Source: a virus
IMG/VR virus record: IMGVR_UViG_3300036780_000084
Location: 1-40,716 of that record
Reading direction: 5' to 3' (one strand)
DNA: 40,716 nt
Shown: positions 1,349 to 38,754 of the stretch, one piece after another
Layout of the letters: each line of letters opens with the position of its first letter
Position numbering within the stretch: the stretch's first letter is position 1
Program-made: the position numbers and the translations under genes
The notes under the pieces: generated by a model
The model's database searches: none
What the model was told of the DNA's origin: nothing
What the model saw: the letters and a program-made list of their open reading frames with translations, nothing else

Positions 1349-4300
1349 TAGAGCTCCTGATACTTTCGGCCGAAGATCCCGAAGCTGATGAGCTCGTTTC
1401 GCACCGTGTCGGTCGAGCCGAAATCAACCTTGAGCCGGATCCGCCGGCCGAGAGCGACTTGCATGGTCTGGCTGATGTAGAAACGGTCGGGCCAGTAATT
1501 CGGCGTGATGGCGTTTCCTTGATAGGCGATCGGCGGATCGAAAACAAATTGCGAAAGCAAATTCCAGCTCGGGCTCGGCGTCGGATCGTCTATGACGAAA
1601 GAAACGAGCGGCTGGGTTCCCACGGATTCAAAATCCATCTGCACAAAGTCGATCGCCGCACGCTGGCCAGGCGAAACGAGCGTGATGGCGCCGATGTCAA
1701 ACCAGGACGAGTAGGCCGAGCCATTGTCGCTATAAACGCTCGTGTCGCGTTTGAGAATCGGCTGATTGGTTCCCGTGCCGCCCACGAGCAACTTGCGCAC
1801 GCCCGGCGCCGTCACGAGAGATTGAACCATTTTGCAGCCGCCTACGATCGCAGCCCTGGGCGACCAGACGGAGACATTCTCGCCGCTCACGTCGGCGCCC
1901 ACCTGGTGGGGATTCAGGCGAAACCATTCGCTTGAGCCATCCGCGATGTAGACCGCATTGTCCGTTCCGGATTCATGCACGGTCACGTAGGCATTCGCGG
2001 CGTTAAAAGCCTTGAGCTTGTTGCCCACGGGGAAGCCGGATCGAGCGAGCTGCAAGGATGGGTTGAGGATCCAGAATTGCGAGTCGCTCGAGAGGAAGCA
2101 GATCTCGCCGCCGATCACGTCCCAGGCGTTATAAGACAGCAACCCAACTCCGGGAACCATTGTCGTTGCGTAGAAACTCGAAGTCAGCGGGCCACCGTAG
2201 ATGCACTCGAAATCCGTCGTGGTCGGGCAGATCAAACCCGCCGGCGTGTGAATGCACGCGGTGACAGTCGACTCGAACGGGAAATCGTCATCGGGACTGA
2301 AAGCCTCATTCGGGTTGCCGGTAAGCACGTCCGGGCCGCCCGAGAAATACACCGTGTTTCCGACGGCGCCGAATACGCGCTGGAAATGAAGCTTGCTACA
2401 AAGCGGCCGGAAGGCGGCGAGCGGCGGATCATTCGCATGGTTGATGGGCGCGCCGATGAAGTTATCGAGCCCGGGGAAGTTAATCCCGCTCACGGTTGAT
2501 GCCACGTCGGGCAAGAAGTCTTTGAACTGCCAGGGCTGCGCGACGCCGCCGATAGGTTTGGGCGCCGGGATTTCGATGAGCTCGAACATATTATCGACGC
2601 CCCCGCCATCGCCATCCCTCCAAATAACGATCGTGTCGACCTGGGGATCCGTGGATCCAAAACCGGCCACGGTGTTGACGGCGCCGGTGGTGTTGGGAGT
2701 CGAGAGCGTCGCGGCCGGCGAAGCGGTTGAAACGGCGCCGGTGCCGCCGCCCTGATAAGCGCCGAGCGGGGTCGTGAGTCCCGGGACATTGCCGAGCGGA
2801 GCGAGCGCCCCTTGGGTGTTCAGGTTGACGAAAGTCAGAAGCGCGGTCGTCACGTAATCGTCCGTCGCCTCGCGGCATTTGAACGAGTACGCGTACACGT
2901 GGCTATTCGTCCAGGTGATTGATTGAGCCGAGAAGGCCGCGGCGCACGTCCAGGTGATTCCCGAATCCGTCGTCGTAGCTCCCACCGTCGTCGCCCAGGA
3001 AGGGGCCACGCTGCCGGATTTCCCGCTCGAGGTGACAAACTGAACGAAGTTCGAGCCGATCACCGAAGCGCCGCCGAAAGCCTGTGAGCCGAGCGGCGGG
3101 GCGAATCCCACGGCCGGCAAATACCATTGGGTCGCGGCCGCCCACGTAACCGGCGGGCCCACGCACGCCCAGCTCGTCGTACCGTCGGCCGTCTGCGCTC
3201 CGTAGGTTGCGCCCCAGGGATTGAATACCGCGGTCCCGGCATGAGTCTCGGCGACGCCCGAAGGATTCGCCACGACGAGCTGCGTCGACGAGCAAGAAAT
3301 GACTTTGAAAGTCCCGTTGTTTGCCGAGGTCGTAAAGCCCGCGATAACCGCGTTGTAATTCGCGAGAAAAACGGGTGCGAAAGTTCCGGTATAGGTGGTA
3401 TTGCCGCCGGATGCGTTCGCGGCCGCGGTCAGCGTGGCGGTGGTTCCGGGTTCGATTGTCGCGCTCGAGCCGTTCGTCAAGCACACTTGCATATTGGTGC
3501 CGTCGAAGATGGCCGAGAACGTCGAGTTGCCGTACACCCAGGCGATGAAGCTTGTTGACGCGGACCAGGCCGACGGGCCCAAGCAAAGCCACGCGAGCTG
3601 ATTGTCGGTGGTGATGGATCCGATGGCTTGCGAAGTGATTCCCGTCCAGGGCGTATAGCTTGTGTTGGCCGTCGTTCCGGCTGTCGTCGCCCCGAGTAAA
3701 TAAATCGCCTGTCCGTTGCAAAGAGTCCCATTCGCCGCGATGTAAGGCGCGACGGGGAAGCAGATTGCCGCGTTGATTTTGCTCGGATCATTCCCCGTCG
3801 ACGGCTGGATGTATTGATTAAAAACCGTGTTCTTGCTCCACTGCGTGACAACGCTCGGCGTTCCGCCCACAACCCCCAGGGGCATCCACTTGCCGCCGCC
3901 CGAGTACTCGGCCACGCGATTCGCGCTGTACGTCGTGCCGCTGGCTGAAATGTTGAGCGTGAAAGCCGGCCGCTTCGTCCCGCTCGTCCAGGAGTAATTG
4001 TGCGAGTTGATCCAAATCGCGTTTGTCGCCGGATCGTAGATGGCTTGCCCGGACTGATAGATCGTCGACGCGGACCAAAGACCGATCTGGCCCTGAGAAG
4101 TCCAAACCACGCTTCCGTCATTCGTCGTCGTGCCCGCCCCCGTCGAAAAGAGCGGCGCGCCATTGCCGCTCAAACCGATCTGCGTTGAATTGTTTGCGAG
4201 CGCGTTCACCGAATAGAGCTGCTGAGTGTTGCCGTTGCCGTCGACGATGAGCCCCATCGTCGAAAAAACGGTGGATGCGGCCCAGGCCACGGCCGAAGCG

Positions 4301-23688: not shown

Positions 23689-24843
23689 TCACTTGATTCT
23701 GAATTTCGCCCCTGCCTCTTCAAAACGCCGGCAGAGCCGGCCGAATTCTTGCGGCGTTGCGACGACGGCCTTCGCGGCGTGCTTATAGAACGGCTTCAAC
23801 ATTTCGCGATGCTCGTGCATGAGCGAAGCGAACCCGCTGATCTCGTAACACTCGTTCGCGAGTTTCTTGCACGTGAACCCCGGGAAGTTATCGGGTTGGG
23901 TCGGCTCGTTTACGAGCTCGGCGTCGGTGGGATTGGGCGGATCCGCCGGCGGGGCCTTTTTGTCCCACTGGCTAAATTGTTTGTGCATGTGCTCGATCTG
24001 CGCCGGCGTTTTGGTCTTGAGATCTTCCTGATTCTTTTTGACGAGCTCGGCGAAGGATTCCTTCGCGCCGCGCTTTCCCGCGAGCTGCGCCATCATCACG
24101 GCGAGCTCGTAGGTCTGGCCGGCTTCGGGTAGTGCGGCTTGGCTTCCGTCGGTGATTTCGACGACGCGGCCGGCCGGCGTGACGTCGTAGTAGCCGGTGT
24201 CCATGTCCTCGATCTCCGACTGGTCGAGCATGTGCAACCCGCAGATTGAAAGCGTGGCCCGCCGCTTGGCTTTGGTCTCGGCTCGCATCATCGCGTTTGC
24301 GAGCTCCTTCCCCTGGAGATCGTAGATCTTCCATTCGCTGCCGCTCTTCTTGCGCTTCTTGAGCCACACGATGCCGGTGCCGAAATCCTCGCGGTTCTCG
24401 CGCTTGATGTAGGCCGCAACTTCGACGTGATAAAACTCGCCCTCTCTGAGTTTCTTCGGGTGCGGGTCGAAACCGATTCGGTGGATCCGCCGCAACTGCG
24501 CGGTGCAATCGGCCCGCGCGTAGAGGGTCATTTTGCCCGTCCGCGTGGCGCCGTCGTCCTCGTCCGTGTCTTTGAACACGATGTATTCAAACGGCCTGGT
24601 CATCGGGTTAAGGCCCAGGCTCTTGCAGAGCGATTTGTAGTAGATCAGCCTCTCGGTCGGCGTGAGATTGGTGAGATCCCCGCTTAACAGGAGACTTTCG
24701 ATGCGCTCGGGAAGAGAGAGCGGCCGCTGGATGGCCGTTTGAACGCGTTGTTTCGCGCCTGGCTTGGCCTGGGCGGCTCCGCGGGCCGTCTTACCCCTTC
24801 TTTTCGAGTTTGCGTGCCGCAAATCGGCTTTCTGCTTCGTCAT
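23689..24843 (-). CDS. RecT/Redβ-like single-strand annealing protein, 384 aa
   Basis: ATG 24843 overlaps the preceding stop (ATGA). The N-terminal 40 residues are basic. Then LIYYKSLCKSLGLNPMTRPF (67-85) and the block LANAMMRAETKAKRRATLSI-CGLHMLD (181-206) are characteristic of RecT-family annealases in environmental phages. The GTGIVWLKKRKKSGSEWKIY strand between them is also typical. Such proteins bind single-stranded DNA and promote annealing and strand exchange in recombination-dependent replication. No exonuclease partner is recognised nearby. The C-terminal 120 residues (after an acidic/proline linker) are an extra region of unknown role. Confidence 0.82.
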   Translation of the reverse strand: MTKQKADLRHANSKRRGKTARGAAQAKPGAKQRVQTAIQRPLSLPERIESLLLSGDLTNLTPTERLIYYKSLCKSLGLNPMTRPFEYIVFKDTDEDDGATRTGKMTLYARADCTAQLRRIHRIGFDPHPKKLREGEFYHVEVAAYIKRENREDFGTGIVWLKKRKKSGSEWKIYDLQGKELANAMMRAETKAKRRATLSICGLHMLDQSEIEDMDTGYYDVTPAGRVVEITDGSQAALPEAGQTYELAVMMAQLAGKRGAKESFAELVKKNQEDLKTKTPAQIEHMHKQFSQWDKKAPPADPPNPTDAELVNEPTQPDNFPGFTCKKLANECYEISGFASLMHEHREMLKPFYKHAAKAVVATPQEFGRLCRRFEEAGAKFRIK

Positions 24844-25061
24844 AGGCCCTTACAGGCGCGAGCCGCGTTCGCCGTCATTGTCGCCTCGCGCACCTTGCGG
24901 ACGGCCGCGGTCTGATCGGCACTCGGCGGGGTGTGCGTGACGATGGTCTGTGCCAGGAGAAACCCGGCGTTTCGGATGGCCTCATAGGCGACGAGATCCT
25001 CTTCGCCGTCGGGCGCGTGGTAGGTGAACCAATTCTCAAGCTGTTCGGTCGTGATGGCCAT
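24840..25061 (-). CDS. acb2: Acb2-type anti-CBASS protein (Acb2/Tad1 hairpin family), 73 aa
   Basis: Read from ATG 25061 behind AAAAGGAG. The sequence has the Acb2 signature: WFTYHAPDGEEDLVAYEAIR (residues 11-30), THTPPSADQTAAVRKVREAT (43-61) and TANAARA (63-69). The key positions are YH-P, Y-x-x-IR, PPSxD, R-x-A/V and M-x-ANA. In T4-like and Pseudomonas phages Acb2 binds cyclic di- and trinucleotides and so blocks CBASS immune signalling; that function is established for the family and inferred here. The reading frame continues upstream without a stop, so a longer fused product is possible (next entry). It immediately precedes the RecT-like gene. Confidence 0.75.
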   Translation of the reverse strand: MAITTEQLENWFTYHAPDGEEDLVAYEAIRNAGFLLAQTIVTHTPPSADQTAAVRKVREATMTANAARACKGL

Positions 25062-25262
25062 GTGGCTCCTTTTCGGGCGTTGCGCCCCCTCAGGTTCGGC
25101 AGTCATAAAAATTCGCAAGAGCTCGCTCGGCGTGATGGCGACGGGAGGATCTACAGAACAATCGACGAGCTCGAGCAAGGGTTCGGGCACTCGATTGATG
25201 TAGTCCGCGAGCAAAGTGCAAATCGCCATTCGCTGCGAGTGGGTGATCTTGATTATCGTCAC
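24840..25262 (-). CDS. Alternative long product: N-terminal unknown domain fused to Acb2-like domain, 140 aa
   Basis: GTG 25262 overlaps the stop of the upstream gene (GTGA), so translation of this frame is expected. Residues 1-55 (MTIIKITHSQRMAICTLLAD, YINRVPEPLLELVDCSVDPP) look like a small independent helical protein, but it has no stop before the Acb2-like part. A polar linker (TAEPEGAQRPKRSH) joins them. Either a fused 140-residue protein or two products from one frame are made. I cannot tell which dominates. Confidence 0.6.
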   Translation of the reverse strand: MTIIKITHSQRMAICTLLADYINRVPEPLLELVDCSVDPPVAITPSELLRIFMTAEPEGAQRPKRSHMAITTEQLENWFTYHAPDGEEDLVAYEAIRNAGFLLAQTIVTHTPPSADQTAAVRKVREATMTANAARACKGL

Positions 25263-25769: not shown

Positions 25770-25975
25770 GGCGTGGTTTCCTCCACAAATTTGTCGAGCG
25801 CGTCGAGCATCACTTGCGTGGCCCGGAGCCGCTCGCTGAAAATCATTTCCTTAAAGAGTCCCGGCCGGAGCCGCTGGAACTCTTCGCCGACCAGGTTAAA
25901 TAGCTGCACTTCAAAGTCGGTCCACTGGCCCGTGTCGACGCGCGTACCCCGTTGCTCGAGCGGGACGCGTCTCAT
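25760..25975 (-). CDS. Unknown protein, 71 aa
   Basis: ATG 25975 overlaps the stop of the HNH gene (TAATG). Begins MRRVPLEQRGTRVDTGQWTD and is otherwise helical (QLFNLVGEEFQRLRPGLFKE). It may have been directly coupled to the 282-residue coiled-coil gene before the HNH gene entered. Function unknown. Confidence 0.6.
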   Translation of the reverse strand: MRRVPLEQRGTRVDTGQWTDFEVQLFNLVGEEFQRLRPGLFKEMIFSERLRATQVMLDALDKFVEETTPWK

Positions 25976-26337
25976 TAAACGTACCTGCCGTTTCGGTCGC
26001 GCTGTCGGTGCGCGTTTTGCTCTGCGTTCGTCGCCCAGCGGCAATTGCTGGGTTTGTAATCACCGTCGTTATCGGGCCATCTGTCGATCGAGTGGCGGCG
26101 CGTCGGCTTCGGTCCCATATCGGCCAGGAAATTATCGAACTTTCGCCACGGCTCGTGTACCTTGATGCCGCGCCCGCCATATGACGAAAAGCGACCATTC
26201 TTTGGATTCAGGCACCGTTGAAGCATCGCGTACCAGCTTCGATATTCGGAGCTCGTGCCCGAACGTACAGCATGGCCATGCCGGCGATTTTGCCGATGGA
26301 GGAACTCCAATTGCGCGATCTGGCCAGGTGACCTCAT
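25975..26337 (-). CDS. HNH-type homing endonuclease, 120 aa
   Basis: ATG 26337 overlaps the TGA of the coiled-coil gene (ATGA) and its TAA overlaps the next ATG, so the gene fits exactly between two genes. It contains SEYRSWYAMLQRCLNPKNGR, then SSYGGRGIKVHEPWRKFDNF-LADMGP, HSIDRWPDNDGDYKPSNCRW and EQN. This set (YGGRGI, W-KF-NFL-DMG, DR-DNDG-Y-P-NCRW) is typical of small phage HNH proteins related to the AP2-domain group. The nuclease at 39468-40004 shares this part. Confidence 0.8.
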   Translation of the reverse strand: MRSPGQIAQLEFLHRQNRRHGHAVRSGTSSEYRSWYAMLQRCLNPKNGRFSSYGGRGIKVHEPWRKFDNFLADMGPKPTRRHSIDRWPDNDGDYKPSNCRWATNAEQNAHRQRDRNGRYV

Positions 26338-27182
26338 CCCTTTGAATACGCCTTCACGCCGGGTAGCTCGCGCATCACGGCGTCGGAGTCTTTGCGCTCG
26401 CGCGCATATTTAGATATTTCGCCTTCGTTGACGAGGATGAACCGCATGAGCAATTTCTGGCGTGCCTGATCGTTGTTTAGAACCGCCGCGAGATAGTCCG
26501 CGTGGATCCGGGCGCCGCCGTCGGTGAGCTCGGCATAATAATAAGTTTGATTTTTGAAGCCGGGCACACTCGGAATCGAAGGCACGACGCGCACGGTCGG
26601 CGCCGGCGCGTTCTTGGCCTCTTCGGCCACAGCGGCCGCGGTTTGCTTCGCGGCTTCCTCTTCGGCGCCGGCTTCTTTCAGAAGTCGCGCCGCTTCGCGT
26701 TTGCCGATGCGGCCGGCTGCGAGATCCCGATTGATCTCGCCCACTTTCTGACGCCGAGTTTCAGCCGCGGCTTTGTCGGCTTCGCGCTTCTCGTCCTCGG
26801 CCTTTTGAAGTTTGAGCCGGTCCTGTTCCTGCTGTCGGCGGATCTGGTCGGCCTGGGCCTTGCGCTTTTCCTCCGCGGTAAATTCGCGCTGTTTATCGAC
26901 CAGGGCCTTGAGCCATCCCTTCACCGGCGTCACAAGCTGCGAGATCTGGAGCTTGAGCCGCTTGACCTTCTCTTCGGCCGGCGCGAGCTCGGGTTCAAAA
27001 TAGTTTTCAACCGAGCGCACGTAGTTCTCGAAATCCAGCTTCACTCCCGACGCGCGCACGAGATCGTCCTGGGTAGCGATAGCGAGCTCGGAATTGGCCT
27101 TCATCTCTTCGAGCCGGTGGTTGAAAATTTCGATCGCCGTTTCGTTTGGAACGTCGATTCTCACCATGTCTTGATTCTTCAT
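26334..27182 (-). CDS. Coiled-coil early protein, 282 aa
   Basis: ATG 27182 overlaps the preceding stop. Residues 60-195 form a long charged coiled coil (RSVENYFEPELAPAEEKVKR; KQREFTAEEKRKAQADQIRR; EKREADKAAAETRRQKVGEI). The C-terminal 80 residues are a compact alpha/beta domain (YAELTDGGARIHADYLAAVL). Similar proteins occur next to recombination genes in many phages and may be nuclease inhibitors or recombination accessories; this is not demonstrated here. Confidence 0.65.
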   Translation of the reverse strand: MKNQDMVRIDVPNETAIEIFNHRLEEMKANSELAIATQDDLVRASGVKLDFENYVRSVENYFEPELAPAEEKVKRLKLQISQLVTPVKGWLKALVDKQREFTAEEKRKAQADQIRRQQEQDRLKLQKAEDEKREADKAAAETRRQKVGEINRDLAAGRIGKREAARLLKEAGAEEEAAKQTAAAVAEEAKNAPAPTVRVVPSIPSVPGFKNQTYYYAELTDGGARIHADYLAAVLNNDQARQKLLMRFILVNEGEISKYARERKDSDAVMRELPGVKAYSKG

Positions 27183-32964: not shown

Positions 32965-33588
32965 TCATGCACGGAGACGATGCGCCTCTGTTGCGGCCGG
33001 TCCATAGAGAGCCTCGAGGGAGAGAAATTCTTCGGGAGTGTAACGCACGTCGATGATGTAAGCCATCCAATCCTCGATCGGCGTCACAGGCTCGCAGAGC
33101 CCGCACGGACAGGGTTTCAAAGCCACCTTGGCGCTCGTCGCGCGGATCCCGTTCTCGCGCATCACCCAGCCGGCCCAGCGATCCTCCGCGGAAGATCCGA
33201 TCAAAGGATTAAACGGCGCCGTCGAAAGAATCCTGAGCGCGCGCCGACTCAGCCAGTAAAAAGCTCCCGAGCAAAAAACATCCTCGCGCTCGTCAAGAAG
33301 ACAGCCGGCGTAATCGCCTTCCGGGATCTCGAGCCGCTCGGTTCTAACGTAGGCGTCATCGTCGCAAATGATGAGCCCGTCGTAATGGTGCACGTTTGCA
33401 TACCAGGCGATCGCACGGGTCTTTGCGACCAGGCCGTTGTAATCGTCAGGCACACCCAGCCGGCGGCCGGTGAAAACCTGGAAATCATATTCGGGCGGAA
33501 GTCTCTTCGCCCAGGTCCGCTCGATGAGCTGCCGGCGGGCAATGTAGGGCCCGTGATCGCACGTCTCGAGAGCCAGGAGGATCTTCAT
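32965..33588 (-). CDS. GT31-like glycosyltransferase, 207 aa
   Basis: ATG 33588. Hallmarks of the galactosyltransferase-type GT-A fold: ARRQLIERTWAKRLPPEYDF (17-36), NGLVAKTRAIAWYANVHHYD (51-70), GLIICDDDAYVR with DDD at 76-78 (metal-binding DxD), CSGAFYWLSRRAL (106-118) and EDRWAGWVM (135-143). It would transfer a sugar from a nucleotide donor. In a phage the target could be a virion protein, phage DNA or the host envelope; the position after the ejection proteins does not settle this. Confidence 0.8.
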   Translation of the reverse strand: MKILLALETCDHGPYIARRQLIERTWAKRLPPEYDFQVFTGRRLGVPDDYNGLVAKTRAIAWYANVHHYDGLIICDDDAYVRTERLEIPEGDYAGCLLDEREDVFCSGAFYWLSRRALRILSTAPFNPLIGSSAEDRWAGWVMRENGIRATSAKVALKPCPCGLCEPVTPIEDWMAYIIDVRYTPEEFLSLEALYGPAATEAHRLRA

Positions 33589-33609
33589 GTATAGACTTGT
33601 ATATACGCT

Positions 33610-36600
33610 CTACTCGGCGAGCGAGAACCGAAAGGCGCGGATCCGCTCACGCATGTCCTGATTCTCTTCGCGGGTTCGCTTTGGCGTCGAGAGCATCCAC
33701 TTGTCGATTTTCGATTGAATGAGCGGCCGCAAAGCGCGGCGTTCGGTCAGGCCGGCTTTGTCCCACACCTGGAACGTATCGGCTAGGCCCAGGCGTGCGA
33801 CGGTGCCCTGGAGCTGTGAAGGGTATTTGTGCGCCTTCCCGATGATCTCCGATGCTTCCGTCGCCGTGAGCTTGGCCTTGGGTCCACTCGACGCCTCGTG
33901 AATCGCCTTCATCGCTTGCACCCGGCCGGCGTTGTCACGATCGACGATGGAGCTACGAAGCGTGTCCTCGAGCCGGTAACGGAGTTGCGCCTTCTCGATC
34001 TCCTTCCCCTCGAGGGGAGCTTCTTCCCCGCGCTTGCTCGCGAATTGATAGGCGAGCGTTTCCGCCGGCGTGAAATGTTTCCGAGATCCGACGCCGGTGC
34101 TCTGCAAAACTTTGTCGAGCGCGCTCGGCTGTGAGATCTGCTGATTCGGGTAGAGCCCCTGGAGCGGAATCGGCGTGATCTGCCGCAGCGTGTCGAAAAA
34201 CTTCTGCGCGTCCGTCACCTTGTGGCCCATCTGATCCTCACCGTAAGCGATCTCGGCCGGCGCCCGCACCATGAGCGGATTGACGCGGTTGGCCAGGAAG
34301 TCGCGCGGCTTCTCAGCGAAGTGCAAGAAATCACCGAGCGTCGTCCGCAAGCTATATTCCCGCTTGCCGTTTTTGGACAGAACCGAGAAGCCGGCTTCCG
34401 GCCGGGTGTCTCCGGAGACCAGGTAATTGATCCCGCGCGCGAGCATCCAATGCGCCACGTTGAAGGCGACCAGGCTCTTGAGCATCGGGCCGCCATGCTT
34501 GCCGGCCACGTCGAGGACCGATCGCCCGGTCGATTCCAGGAAGTCGGGCGCGAGCAATAGCGTTCGCAGCGTGTTTTGCGTACTGGCGCCGCGGCCGAGA
34601 ACCGTATAGTTGAGCCCGCCGAATTTGTTGTTTACCTGCGATGCGGCGATGCGCCCGGCCTGTTCGTCGGTGAGCTCCGGATGCGCGGCCTTGATCTCCG
34701 GCGTCAGCTTGTCGTACAGATCGAACTTGAGCGAAGTAATCCAGCCGTGAGGACCGAACAACTTTCCCTCGATCGCGTGATTGAAGTCCCCGACCAGCGG
34801 GATCTTGTTGATGATGGACTCATGGCCGGCGCCGAGCCCCTCGCTCAGATAGCCGCTGAATCCCGGCCGCGTCGAGGACACGACTACTCCATTGCGAATC
34901 GCGGCTCGCTGCGAATCGGTGAGGTTGTAGTAGTCAATGTCCCTGGGCATAAAAACAAACTTGCGGTTCCCGCCGCGGAAGGGATTGAGCCCGCTTTCGA
35001 GCGTGCGGTTGAGAATCGTCGCCCAATGGAAGGGCGAGAGCGAGAGAAGGTCTGACTTTGCTTCGCTCGACACTTTGAGGATCGCGCGCACGAGAGCGTT
35101 CTTCGGCCGCGTCGATTCGAGAACGGATTCGAGATGAGGCGCGACTTCGGGCGCCACGTAGACGGGCACACGCGCGTTTGCGATCTTCTCGTTTTCTTCC
35201 GCCGGCACGCCCGGAATGCCGGCTTGGCCCTTTTCCATGATGGCCTGTTCCGGGAAGGGCCCTTTGCCGAAGGGGACGATCGCGGTCTCTTTCGGGAGCT
35301 CGTTCGCTTCGCTCGCTGAAACCGGGCGCCACACAGCAAGCCCGCTCGGAACGTAGTCGGATTGCTTCCACTTGTAGTTTGGCGCGCCTGGCCTGGTCGT
35401 CTTGAGAAATTGCGCGTCCTGGGCGCTGCCGCCCATCTCCTGGAACTTCTTGGCCATCGCATCCTGGATCTTCTCGGCCGTCAAACCTTCCTCGGGCACC
35501 GTCACCGAAACGAATTTGCGCATGCGCGGATCGAGAGTAGTCAGCTTGTTCGCAACATCCTCGGGTAAGGTCACTTCGACGAGTCCGGCTTTAGCGCCGC
35601 GGAAGACGCCGCCGGCTTCTTCGACCGTCTGTTGCGGGCCGGCCTTTGCCTTTCCGGCGCCCGCGGCTTCACCCGTGAGCGTGGTTTCCGGCCGGCCGCC
35701 CGGAACTTCATAGATGCGTCCGGATTTCAGGAGCGCATCGAATTTGCCGGCGGCTTTGAGATTCGCGACTTCGGCCGGATCCACGGGCGCGTCGACGGGG
35801 CGCGTAAAACCCGGGAAGAGATGCCCAGGCGCGGCCATTGGCGCACCTTCGTTCGTATAGGATCCGGCCAGCTTTTCGGCCAGGTTATTTTTCGCGATCA
35901 AGTTTGAAACGCGCTCGTGGTAATCGGCGATGAGCGCGACGGCATCTTTTGTCGTGGGCTTGAGCCCCTTCTGTTCCCCTTCGGCGATCGAATCGAATTT
36001 CCTCTTCTTGAGCATGTCGCGATCGCCATCGGTGAGCGTGCTCACAACCGGCTTGCCGGTGTCCGGGTCGATATCCTCGACGTCCCACTTGTGCGGGAGA
36101 TAGTTGGCTTTGCCGCCATCCTCGGGCAAGAGATCGAGCGCCTTCAAGTGAGCGAGATCCGCGGCCAGCTTGTTACGGATTTCGTCGCGGACCTGGATTT
36201 CGGTGTCCGATAGATTTTTCGCGGCGCGGAATTCCTTCGCCGTGTCCGCGGTCTTGGGGTTCGCTTCGGCCGCTTTGGCTTGCGCCTCGAGCACGTTCGG
36301 ATCGGCGCCGGCTTCGATGCTGCGCGCGATGGCGACGCGGCGCGCTTCATCGGGGACCATTTTCCGGTACTGATCGAAGTCTTGGCGCGCTTGCCCAATC
36401 CCGACCTGATTCTCTTCCTGGTAGTCGTGGATCCCGTTTGAGTAATGCTCTTGCGCCATCGCCTTCCCTTTGGGGGAGGCGGCGCGGAGCTCGTTCAAAT
36501 CATGCCCGATTCCTTTGGTGGCCAAGCCGGCCGCGATCGCACCGAATACGTTTTCCGTGGCCATGTCGGAAAAACGATCGAGCGCCTTTTGTTTATCCTT

Positions 36601-37260
36601 GTCGGTTTTCGCGGCGCGGTAGTCGCCCCAGGCCATAAGCATTCCGGGAATGCTGGTGGTTCCGAGATCGTAGCCGTACTTGGTCAGAAATCCGAGATTC
36701 GCGACCAGGCTCGCGCGCTTGACGGCGCCGGCGGCTTGAACTTCCGAGATCCCCGGTATTTTGGCGAGTGCCTCGGCGACGGGCCCTTCACCCATCGAAG
36801 CGACGGCCAGGGCGAGACTGGTGGGAGAGGAAAGGCCCGCAACGAAATTCTCGGCGCCGGTCTTGACGCCTTCCGCGGCGCCGAAAAGTTTGCTGCCCTT
36901 GTTCGCCGCCGCGGCCTGGTCGAAACTTTGTGCCAACTTGCTATAGCCGGGAAACAGGGCGATGTCTCCCAGCTTTTCGACGCCCTCGTTTGACAGGAGC
37001 GGTGAGTTGAGCCAATCCCAAACCTTGCCGGCAATACCCGTAGGTTCCGGTTTGGGCTGCTCACCTGAGCGCGAAATAGCGGAAGTGGGCGCCGCGGCCG
37101 CGAAGGGCTTTGCGGGATCGAATGCTGGAGCCGGCTCGGGCTCGTCCATTACCGCGGTTGACGTGTAAGCAGCACTCGGGTTGAACGCCGGCGGCGCTGC
37201 GGGCGCGGTAGCCGTAGCCGGCGCCGCGGTGAACGGCGCGTTTGGGTCGAAGCCTGGCAT
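33610..37260 (-). CDS. Large internal virion / DNA ejection protein, 1216 aa
   Basis: ATG 37260. N-terminal 65 residues are Ala/Pro-rich with FDPNAPF / FNPSAAY / FDPAKPF repeats. The remainder is mostly helical with NYLPHKWDVED near residue 395 and TLRTLLLAPDFLESTGRSVL near 900, both typical of very large phage internal proteins. It follows a 231- and a 496-residue ejection-type protein, matching the T7 gp14-gp15-gp16 order. No lytic transglycosylase motif is visible at the N-terminus, unlike T7 gp16. It probably forms the periplasm-spanning ejection conduit. Confidence 0.75.
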   Translation of the reverse strand: MPGFDPNAPFTAAPATATAPAAPPAFNPSAAYTSTAVMDEPEPAPAFDPAKPFAAAAPTSAISRSGEQPKPEPTGIAGKVWDWLNSPLLSNEGVEKLGDIALFPGYSKLAQSFDQAAAANKGSKLFGAAEGVKTGAENFVAGLSSPTSLALAVASMGEGPVAEALAKIPGISEVQAAGAVKRASLVANLGFLTKYGYDLGTTSIPGMLMAWGDYRAAKTDKDKQKALDRFSDMATENVFGAIAAGLATKGIGHDLNELRAASPKGKAMAQEHYSNGIHDYQEENQVGIGQARQDFDQYRKMVPDEARRVAIARSIEAGADPNVLEAQAKAAEANPKTADTAKEFRAAKNLSDTEIQVRDEIRNKLAADLAHLKALDLLPEDGGKANYLPHKWDVEDIDPDTGKPVVSTLTDGDRDMLKKRKFDSIAEGEQKGLKPTTKDAVALIADYHERVSNLIAKNNLAEKLAGSYTNEGAPMAAPGHLFPGFTRPVDAPVDPAEVANLKAAGKFDALLKSGRIYEVPGGRPETTLTGEAAGAGKAKAGPQQTVEEAGGVFRGAKAGLVEVTLPEDVANKLTTLDPRMRKFVSVTVPEEGLTAEKIQDAMAKKFQEMGGSAQDAQFLKTTRPGAPNYKWKQSDYVPSGLAVWRPVSASEANELPKETAIVPFGKGPFPEQAIMEKGQAGIPGVPAEENEKIANARVPVYVAPEVAPHLESVLESTRPKNALVRAILKVSSEAKSDLLSLSPFHWATILNRTLESGLNPFRGGNRKFVFMPRDIDYYNLTDSQRAAIRNGVVVSSTRPGFSGYLSEGLGAGHESIINKIPLVGDFNHAIEGKLFGPHGWITSLKFDLYDKLTPEIKAAHPELTDEQAGRIAASQVNNKFGGLNYTVLGRGASTQNTLRTLLLAPDFLESTGRSVLDVAGKHGGPMLKSLVAFNVAHWMLARGINYLVSGDTRPEAGFSVLSKNGKREYSLRTTLGDFLHFAEKPRDFLANRVNPLMVRAPAEIAYGEDQMGHKVTDAQKFFDTLRQITPIPLQGLYPNQQISQPSALDKVLQSTGVGSRKHFTPAETLAYQFASKRGEEAPLEGKEIEKAQLRYRLEDTLRSSIVDRDNAGRVQAMKAIHEASSGPKAKLTATEASEIIGKAHKYPSQLQGTVARLGLADTFQVWDKAGLTERRALRPLIQSKIDKWMLSTPKRTREENQDMRERIRAFRFSLAE

Positions 37261-37263
37261 GGT

Positions 37264-38754
37264 TTACTTCGCTGCTGAAATCGGTTCCGCGCTCGTCGGC
37301 TTCCCGTCCGGGCCGAGCTCGAGAATTTTGTAGCTCACGCCGTTCTGCGTGATCGTGTCGCCCACCTTGAACGGCCCTGGGTTTCCGACGGTGTGCGGCT
37401 TCTGATTGCCAGGCTTGTTGTCGCCGGCGCCGGGTTTGTTGTAGCCGAGACCGAGTTTCCGCAGATTGTCGTAAGCGACGCCGACCTGCTCTTGCGCGTC
37501 GGTGACGTGATACTTCTCGGCGAGATCTTTGTATTGCTGGCTCGACTTGTCGACGTCGCCCGTTTTCTCGTCGATCGGCACGTCCGAAAAATCAGGATCG
37601 GCGCGAAGATCCTTTTGCGCGCCCTGGTACGCCTGGAACGAAAACTGATAGCGTTTGTACGCGTCGCCGCTCAAAGCCTCTTTGTCGCCGGCCATGAGCT
37701 TCGAGTAATCGCCGCCGAGCTCGGAGAGGTGCTGGCGGGCCTTTTTGACCGTCCCTTCATCCTTCAAATCGCCGATAGATTTTTTCGCATCGGCGTAACT
37801 TTTCGCGGCGCGCGCGTTCATGTCTTTAATCTGCGCGACTTTTTCCTGGTAATTGAGCACCCCGAGCGGATCGGTGAAGATTCGCGTCGCCTTCCCGCTC
37901 GAGTCGTTGACGCTGTGCCACTCCGGGCCCGTGTCGGGCACTTCGTAGAGGTGCCATTTCCCATCGCCGCCCAACACGGGACGCGTGCGATATCCGTTGT
38001 TGTGGGCATTTTGGGCGAGGCTGTTGGCTCGCGCGTATTGCTCGAGATCTCCCAGGTGCTCGAACGGCGGCGACTCCTGCCCGGCGATCGACAGCGGTTT
38101 CGCGCCGACGGCTTCGAGCGCGTCCTGGCGATCCGCCTCCTGCTGGCGAAACAAAATGTCCTCGTGGGCGAGCCTGTAATTGCGCTCGTCGTGTTCGTCG
38201 TCCATTTCGCGCATGCGCTTGTCATGCTCGCTGGCCGCCCGCACCGAGTTCGCCTGCTGTCTCGCGTTTTCCTGCTTTCGCGAATCAATTTCGCTGGTGA
38301 CGTTCTGTTGCTCGGCGGTGGCCCGCTGCTTCTCAATGTCGATCTGCTGCTGGCGCTGGTCCTTCTCGGCCTGAAACTCCTTCTGCTTTTGGCGCGCCTC
38401 TCCCGCCTGGCGCGCCGCGGCGCCCACGCCGTAAAGCGCCCCGGCGCCGGCTGGCGCCTTGCCTCCAGCGCCGAATCCCGCGAGCGCGGCATCGACGCCG
38501 GCGACGACATTCTCGGCCCAGGAGCGCGAGCTTCCATTGTTGACCTGGCCGGCGATGATTTTATTTTTCGCGATCTTGACGGCCATCGGTTCCTCGCCGC
38601 CACCGGCGAGCGCGGACGTGGCCTGATCGGGCGCCGGTGAATCGGAGACGTCCGGAGGGGCCGACAAATTCGCCGGCTGGCGAAGGTCTGGATTGGGCGG
38701 TGTGGCATTTCCGCCGCCCGTTGCGAGCATCGTCCGCAGATCGTTTTCCGCCAT
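37264..38754 (-). CDS. Internal virion / ejection protein with long coiled coil, 496 aa
   Basis: ATG 38754 overlaps the upstream stop (TGATG). Residues 115-210 form a Q/E/K/R-rich coiled coil (RQKQKEFQAEKDQRQQQIDI; EHDKRMREMDDEHDERNYRL). C-terminal region is mixed with small beta elements (DTITQNGVSYKILELGPDGK). Gene order and composition fit a T7 gp15-like ejection protein; sequence similarity cannot be claimed by eye. Confidence 0.65.
   Translation of the reverse strand: MAENDLRTMLATGGGNATPPNPDLRQPANLSAPPDVSDSPAPDQATSALAGGGEEPMAVKIAKNKIIAGQVNNGSSRSWAENVVAGVDAALAGFGAGGKAPAGAGALYGVGAAARQAGEARQKQKEFQAEKDQRQQQIDIEKQRATAEQQNVTSEIDSRKQENARQQANSVRAASEHDKRMREMDDEHDERNYRLAHEDILFRQQEADRQDALEAVGAKPLSIAGQESPPFEHLGDLEQYARANSLAQNAHNNGYRTRPVLGGDGKWHLYEVPDTGPEWHSVNDSSGKATRIFTDPLGVLNYQEKVAQIKDMNARAAKSYADAKKSIGDLKDEGTVKKARQHLSELGGDYSKLMAGDKEALSGDAYKRYQFSFQAYQGAQKDLRADPDFSDVPIDEKTGDVDKSSQQYKDLAEKYHVTDAQEQVGVAYDNLRKLGLGYNKPGAGDNKPGNQKPHTVGNPGPFKVGDTITQNGVSYKILELGPDGKPTSAEPISAAK

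What the first reader, a model, noticed from the sequence alone, without database searches (positions are those of the whole stretch)
24840..25262. Acb2-like anti-CBASS gene in one frame with an upstream domain
The Acb2 signature (YHAP, Y..IR, PPSAD, ANA) is clear. The frame runs upstream 67 codons without a stop, to a GTG coupled to the previous gene, while an internal AAAAGGAG-ATG could produce Acb2 alone. A fused sponge or a two-product gene would be new for this family and may alter ligand range or targeting.
Basis: partly seen in the sequence, partly recalled or inferred. Interest (0 to 1): 0.65.

Follow-up and report, generated by a model that had tools for sequence, protein, structure and literature searches.

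The report
Phage sponge fused to neighbour gene
In one uncultured phage, a small gene that is separate in other phages reads straight into a gene for an Acb2-type immune-signal sponge, which keeps its own start site, so the phage probably makes the sponge alone plus a longer fused form; this is a modest new variant of a known anti-defence protein.

Summary
The frame is real: window 24840-25262, minus strand, 140 codons, GTG start in a GTGA overlap with the gene before, ATGA overlap with the gene after. Residues 68-140 are an Acb2/Tad1-hairpin protein. The internal AAAAGGAG-CCAC-ATG lies where 64 of 69 distinct relatives start, so it is the family's normal start. Residues 1-67 are a real, previously unnamed phage domain ('N'), not random read-through: a profile of its three relatives finds it with E 1e-15. 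N stands alone, with its own stop codon, in two other phage contigs. In the collinear sister phage (G014; capsid 86% identical) acb2 is a stand-alone gene and N lies in the next gene downstream, joined to other domains. So the fusion is lineage-specific, made of parts that are separate elsewhere. A second, independent neighbour-acb2 fusion that also keeps the internal start exists (L092 versus L089). Best reading: a two-product gene, mostly Acb2 alone from the internal start, plus a minor 140-aa fusion. N's function is unknown; nothing links it to ligand range or targeting. Extra domains on this hairpin are not new (Tad1). A one-base assembly error cannot be excluded.

The parts
24840..25262 (-). 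Single open frame of 140 codons (GTG start, TGA stop): domain N + Acb2 hairpin
25062..25262 (-). Domain N, residues 1-67 (conserved core residues 4-55 = 25098-25253; T-x-SQ and DCSVDPPV motifs)
   Evidence: leave-one-out profile E 1.2e-15; relatives L015, L100, L017; AF2 beta-alpha-beta-beta-alpha, pLDDT 84
24840..25061 (-). acb2-like gene proper, 73 aa from the internal ATG
   Evidence: PF24729 E 1.4e-5, phrog_1454 E 1.6e-13, 68-72% identity to stand-alone genes, model pLDDT 93-98
25066..25073 (-). AAAAGGAG ribosome-binding site, 4 nt before the internal ATG (25059-25061)
   Evidence: canonical start site in 64/69 relatives, 54 with SD
25259..25262 (-). GTGA overlap: start of fused frame over stop of upstream gene
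   Evidence: same kind of ATGA coupling at the domain-N start in L015 and L100
25259..25438 (-). Upstream 59-aa gene, translationally coupled to the fused frame
23689..24843 (-). Downstream 384-aa gene, ATGA overlap with acb2 stop; shared with the sister phage (no family match)
26334..27182 (-). 282-aa gene; its homologue lies directly upstream of stand-alone acb2 in the sister phage

Best explanation
A lineage-specific in-frame join of two small phage genes. Domain N and acb2 were separate; here N has no stop and runs into acb2 in frame, while acb2's own Shine-Dalgarno and ATG remain. The gene therefore has two start sites sharing one stop. Ribosomes starting at the internal ATG make the 73-aa Acb2-type protein, which by family knowledge forms a hexamer and soaks up cyclic oligonucleotide signals of CBASS-like immunity. 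Ribosomes coupled from the upstream gene at GTG make a 140-aa N-Acb2 protein that can be built into the same oligomer through its C-terminal hairpins. Acb2 alone is the main functional product; the fused form is tolerated or accessory. Shown: frame, homology, start-site conservation, separate genes elsewhere, predicted hairpin. Inferred: use of both starts, hexamer, ligand binding, mixed oligomer.
For: Acb2 assignment. Internal ATG is the family's start. N is a genuine domain and coding. N stand-alone with stop in L015 (73 aa) and L100 (64 aa); the window's N part is 67 aa, the length of a complete N gene, and ends just where acb2 begins. Sister phage G014 has both as separate genes between homologues of the same two flanking genes. 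Independent parallel fusion with retained internal start, L092 versus L089. Precedent for phage genes with two in-frame starts sharing a stop and co-assembling products: PMC9430671.
Against: No expression data. The internal SD energy is not exceptional among internal ATGs (10 of 141 are as strong). Only one genome carries this fusion, so selection for it cannot be tested. The nucleotide-stacking Phe82 of T4 Acb2 aligns with Ala here, so ligand binding is not assured.
Confidence: 0.55

Rival explanations
1. The contig carries a one-base assembly or sequencing error (or a recent mutation in part of the population); in the real phage domain N and acb2 are two adjacent, slightly overlapping genes and there is no fusion.
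For: The parts are separate in the relatives found. G5 (25085-25089) and A4 (25070-25073) runs lie in the junction, and another frame has a stop a few codons inside acb2. The record is a metagenomic contig without reads.
Against: The frame after the T5 run (25107-25111) still matches the N family (residue A55 is invariant), so the frame is right up to codon 55. Only an error in the short codon 56-67 stretch would do it, and in the frame with a nearby stop the separate N gene would then overlap acb2 by about seven codons rather than the 1-4 bases usual here. Consensus errors in assembled contigs are uncommon (general knowledge).
Confidence: 0.2
2. The 140-aa fusion is the main, selected product: N decorates the Acb2 oligomer and changes what it binds or where it goes, like the N-terminal beta-domain of Tad1.
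For: N lies near acb2 in the sister phage too, in the gene right after acb2, joined to a beta-domain of the type fused to the hairpin in L009, so the neighbourhood is repeatedly mixed. The start of N is coupled to the upstream gene.
Against: N occurs without acb2 in the L015 and L100 records and was not found in 76 of the 77 other acb2-bearing records searched (many are fragments). The N-Acb2 linker is less confidently modelled. The canonical acb2 start is intact, which a fusion-only gene would not need.
Confidence: 0.13
3. The C-terminal hairpin is a member of the fold family but not a CBASS sponge; it binds another ligand or partner.
For: PF24729 score 25.6 is under the curated 27; Phe82 of T4 Acb2 is not kept; direct comparison with T4 Acb2 is weak; no PDB sequence match.
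Against: All 13 aligned relatives match PF24729 at E<=1e-3, best 6e-16; the ligand-binding Tyr (Y8 of T4) is conserved.
Confidence: 0.1
4. The upstream 67 codons are merely an open frame by chance and only Acb2 is made.
For: 15 of 69 relatives have long open upstream frames.
Against: Leave-one-out homology E 1.2e-15 and aligned start, length and coupling with stand-alone genes.
Confidence: 0.02

Closest known systems
Acb2 (T4 Vs.4; Pseudomonas phage gp24/p26), PF24729
   Same: Short N-terminal helix plus two long antiparallel helices predicted; family motifs; conserved ligand Tyr
   Different: 67-residue N-terminal domain in the same frame; T4 Phe82 position is Ala; Pfam score just under cut-off
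Tad1 (N-terminal beta-domain plus the same hairpin)
   Same: One chain with an extra N-terminal domain in front of the hairpin
   Different: Domain N does not match the phage beta-domain profile seen in L009 (phrog_11049) and is found alone in other phages
Two-polypeptide phage endolysins with internal translation start (PMC9430671)
   Same: In-frame long and short forms sharing a stop, each with its own ribosome site; the C-terminal part is the oligomerising one
   Different: There both products are shown experimentally and the arrangement recurs; here neither is shown
L092 neighbour-acb2 fusion (this study)
   Same: Upstream gene runs in frame into acb2, internal SD and ATG retained
   Different: Different neighbour gene, truncated by deletion; the window's N is full length

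Membership tests
Acb2/Tad1 hairpin family (PF24729) | Profile match above the curated score | tested here: inconclusive
   Window 25.6 bits against 27; nearest relative L017 33.6, L009 46.4, all 13 relatives match
Acb2/Tad1 hairpin family (PF24729) | Short helix then two long antiparallel helices | tested here: met
   AF2 helices 72-78, 87-110, 115-136, pLDDT 93-98; Foldseek BFVD hits named Acb2/Tad1 hairpin, prob about 1, E 0.02-0.03
Acb2 sponge | Ligand-binding Tyr (T4 Y8; Y8A loses binding, PMC12657218) | tested here: met
   Aligns with Tyr14 of the 73-aa protein
Acb2 sponge | Base-stacking Phe82 of T4 Acb2 (PMC12657218) | tested here: not met
   Ala at this position in the window and most relatives; may be T4-specific, not family-defining
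Acb2 sponge | Homohexamer that sequesters cyclic oligonucleotides | not testable with these tools
   Needs purification and binding assays
Tad1 | N-terminal beta-sheet domain in front of the hairpin | tested here: not met
   No profile match of N to phrog_11049 or another beta-domain family; model is beta-alpha-beta-beta-alpha
In-frame two-product phage gene | Internal in-frame start with its own ribosome site | tested here: met
   AAAAGGAG-CCAC-ATG at the family's canonical start
In-frame two-product phage gene | Both products made | not testable with these tools
   Needs proteomics or ribosome profiling

The most novel reading that the evidence does not exclude
A two-product sponge gene: the phage makes Acb2 alone and an N-Acb2 fusion that co-assemble into a mixed hexamer, with the newly recognised domain N widening or retargeting the sponge; N and the beta-domain of the sister phage would be interchangeable add-on modules around the hairpin.
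Probability: 0.1. Interest if true: 0.65.

Novelty: new variant of a known kind. Interest (0 to 1): 0.35.

Why it matters
It shows an anti-immune sponge gene with a built-in second start and a swappable neighbour domain, and identifies a small phage domain (N) seen next to or joined with sponge genes. If both forms are made, mixed sponge oligomers become testable. If not, it is a clear example of how tight phage operons produce accidental gene fusions.

Tried and rejected
N-part against Pfam, PHROGs and NCBIfam: no hits above noise. tblastn in named phages: only chance matches; Streptomyces phage gp34 was checked and rejected (2-3 bits to the N profile). The single genome-contig scan gave two Sua5-like proteins sharing only DCSVDPP, rejected. 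PDB sequence and Foldseek searches of either model: nothing significant. Search for more sister phages through the downstream gene found only G014; through the capsid, three more records, in which neither part was found (two are fragments). RNA fold around the internal start: no special structure (z 0.15). Papers on the Acb2 and Tad1 structures themselves were not held. Weak N match L102 (E 0.008) not accepted.

Full report
What is there. On the minus strand of the window, 25262 to 24840, one frame of 140 codons starts with GTG in a GTGA overlap with the 59-aa gene before it and ends with TGA in an ATGA overlap with the 384-aa gene after it. The window is a 40,716-base IMG/VR virus record.

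The C-terminal 73 residues. They match PF24729 (Acb2/Tad1 hairpin, E 1.4e-5, 25.6 bits, just under the curated 27) and phrog_1454 (E 1.6e-13). Close relatives, PF24729 matches where tested, came from viral contigs: 13 loci with the protein, 80 (partly the same) with the alignment. AF2 gives the short helix plus long hairpin at pLDDT 93-98. Foldseek finds many viral models named Acb2/Tad1 hairpin. The Tyr that binds cyclic dinucleotides in T4 Acb2 is kept; the stacking Phe82 is not (residues from PMC12657218).

The internal start. Of 69 distinct relatives, 64 have a start codon at this place and 54 have a Shine-Dalgarno-like motif before it. Several begin with the same letters, MAIT..QL. So ATG 25061 is where this gene family normally starts. 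By itself the motif is not decisive: 4 of 145 internal in-frame ATGs in this genome have AGGAG or GGAGG in front.

The N-terminal 67 residues. No library names them. A relative was found alone in L015, another alone in L100, and one in L017. A profile built from those three finds the window's N part as the only significant hit in all six frames (E 1.2e-15), and codon statistics favour this frame. The two stand-alone genes have 73 and 64 codons and start in ATGA overlaps; the window's N has 67 and starts in a GTGA overlap. AF2 on four sequences gives a small beta-alpha-beta-beta-alpha domain, pLDDT 84, with no solved relative. Only four members are known, so the family is thin.

The sister phage. 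L017 lies in G014 (42,936 bases), collinear with the window: capsid 86%, portal 67%, terminase 63% identity (protein roles read by eye). Between the homologues of the same flanking genes it has stand-alone acb2 (2501-2719) and then an ATGA-coupled gene (2716-3357) made of a beta-domain (phrog_11049, as in the hairpin protein L009), domain N and a Cys-containing tail. So both parts are at home in this operon but are separate and in the other order. The window's join arose by rearrangement or loss of a stop in this lineage (inference).

A parallel. In L089 a different neighbour gene ends in TAATG over the acb2 start; in L092 that neighbour is cut short and runs in frame into acb2, with the internal ribosome site kept. 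In-frame joins of neighbours to acb2 therefore happen more than once, which favours an accidental origin, while retention of the internal start suggests the sponge alone still matters.

Function, shown and inferred. Shown: sequence, homology, start conservation, predicted fold. Inferred from the family: hexamer and sequestration of cyclic oligonucleotides (PMC12043709, PMC10419184). Inferred: both starts are used and the long form may join the oligomer, as in phage endolysins with internal starts (PMC9430671). Unknown: what N does; its other neighbours (an SMC-like ATPase gene, a small Cys-rich gene; read by eye) do not point to defence.

Doubts. A one-base error in the junction could separate the genes, and no reads can be checked here. 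N's function and any effect on ligand range are untested. The claim that an extra domain on this sponge would be new is not right, because Tad1 has one.

Noticed in passing
L017 2716-3357 (sister phage G014 about 33503-34144): Gene coupled to acb2 by ATGA, made of a beta-domain like that fused to the hairpin in L009, plus domain N, plus a CxCGW tail; could be a partner of the stand-alone sponge (a split Tad1-like arrangement).
   Followed up: partly
L092 2240-2710 versus L089 2106-2504: A second, independent in-frame fusion of a neighbouring gene to acb2, apparently by internal deletion, with the internal start retained.
   Followed up: yes
window 25975-26337: HNH endonuclease gene (phrog_3377, E 2e-34) whose homologue in the collinear sister phage lies at a different place (37034-37348): probably a mobile gene inserted near the acb2 operon.
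   Followed up: partly
window 23689-24843: 384-aa conserved gene after acb2 with no significant match in Pfam, PHROGs or NCBIfam; looks like a DNA-annealing recombinase by eye only; found only in the sister phage.
   Followed up: partly
L087 2498-2956: acb2 hairpin with an unusual C-terminal extension of about 80 residues (153 aa in all).
   Followed up: no
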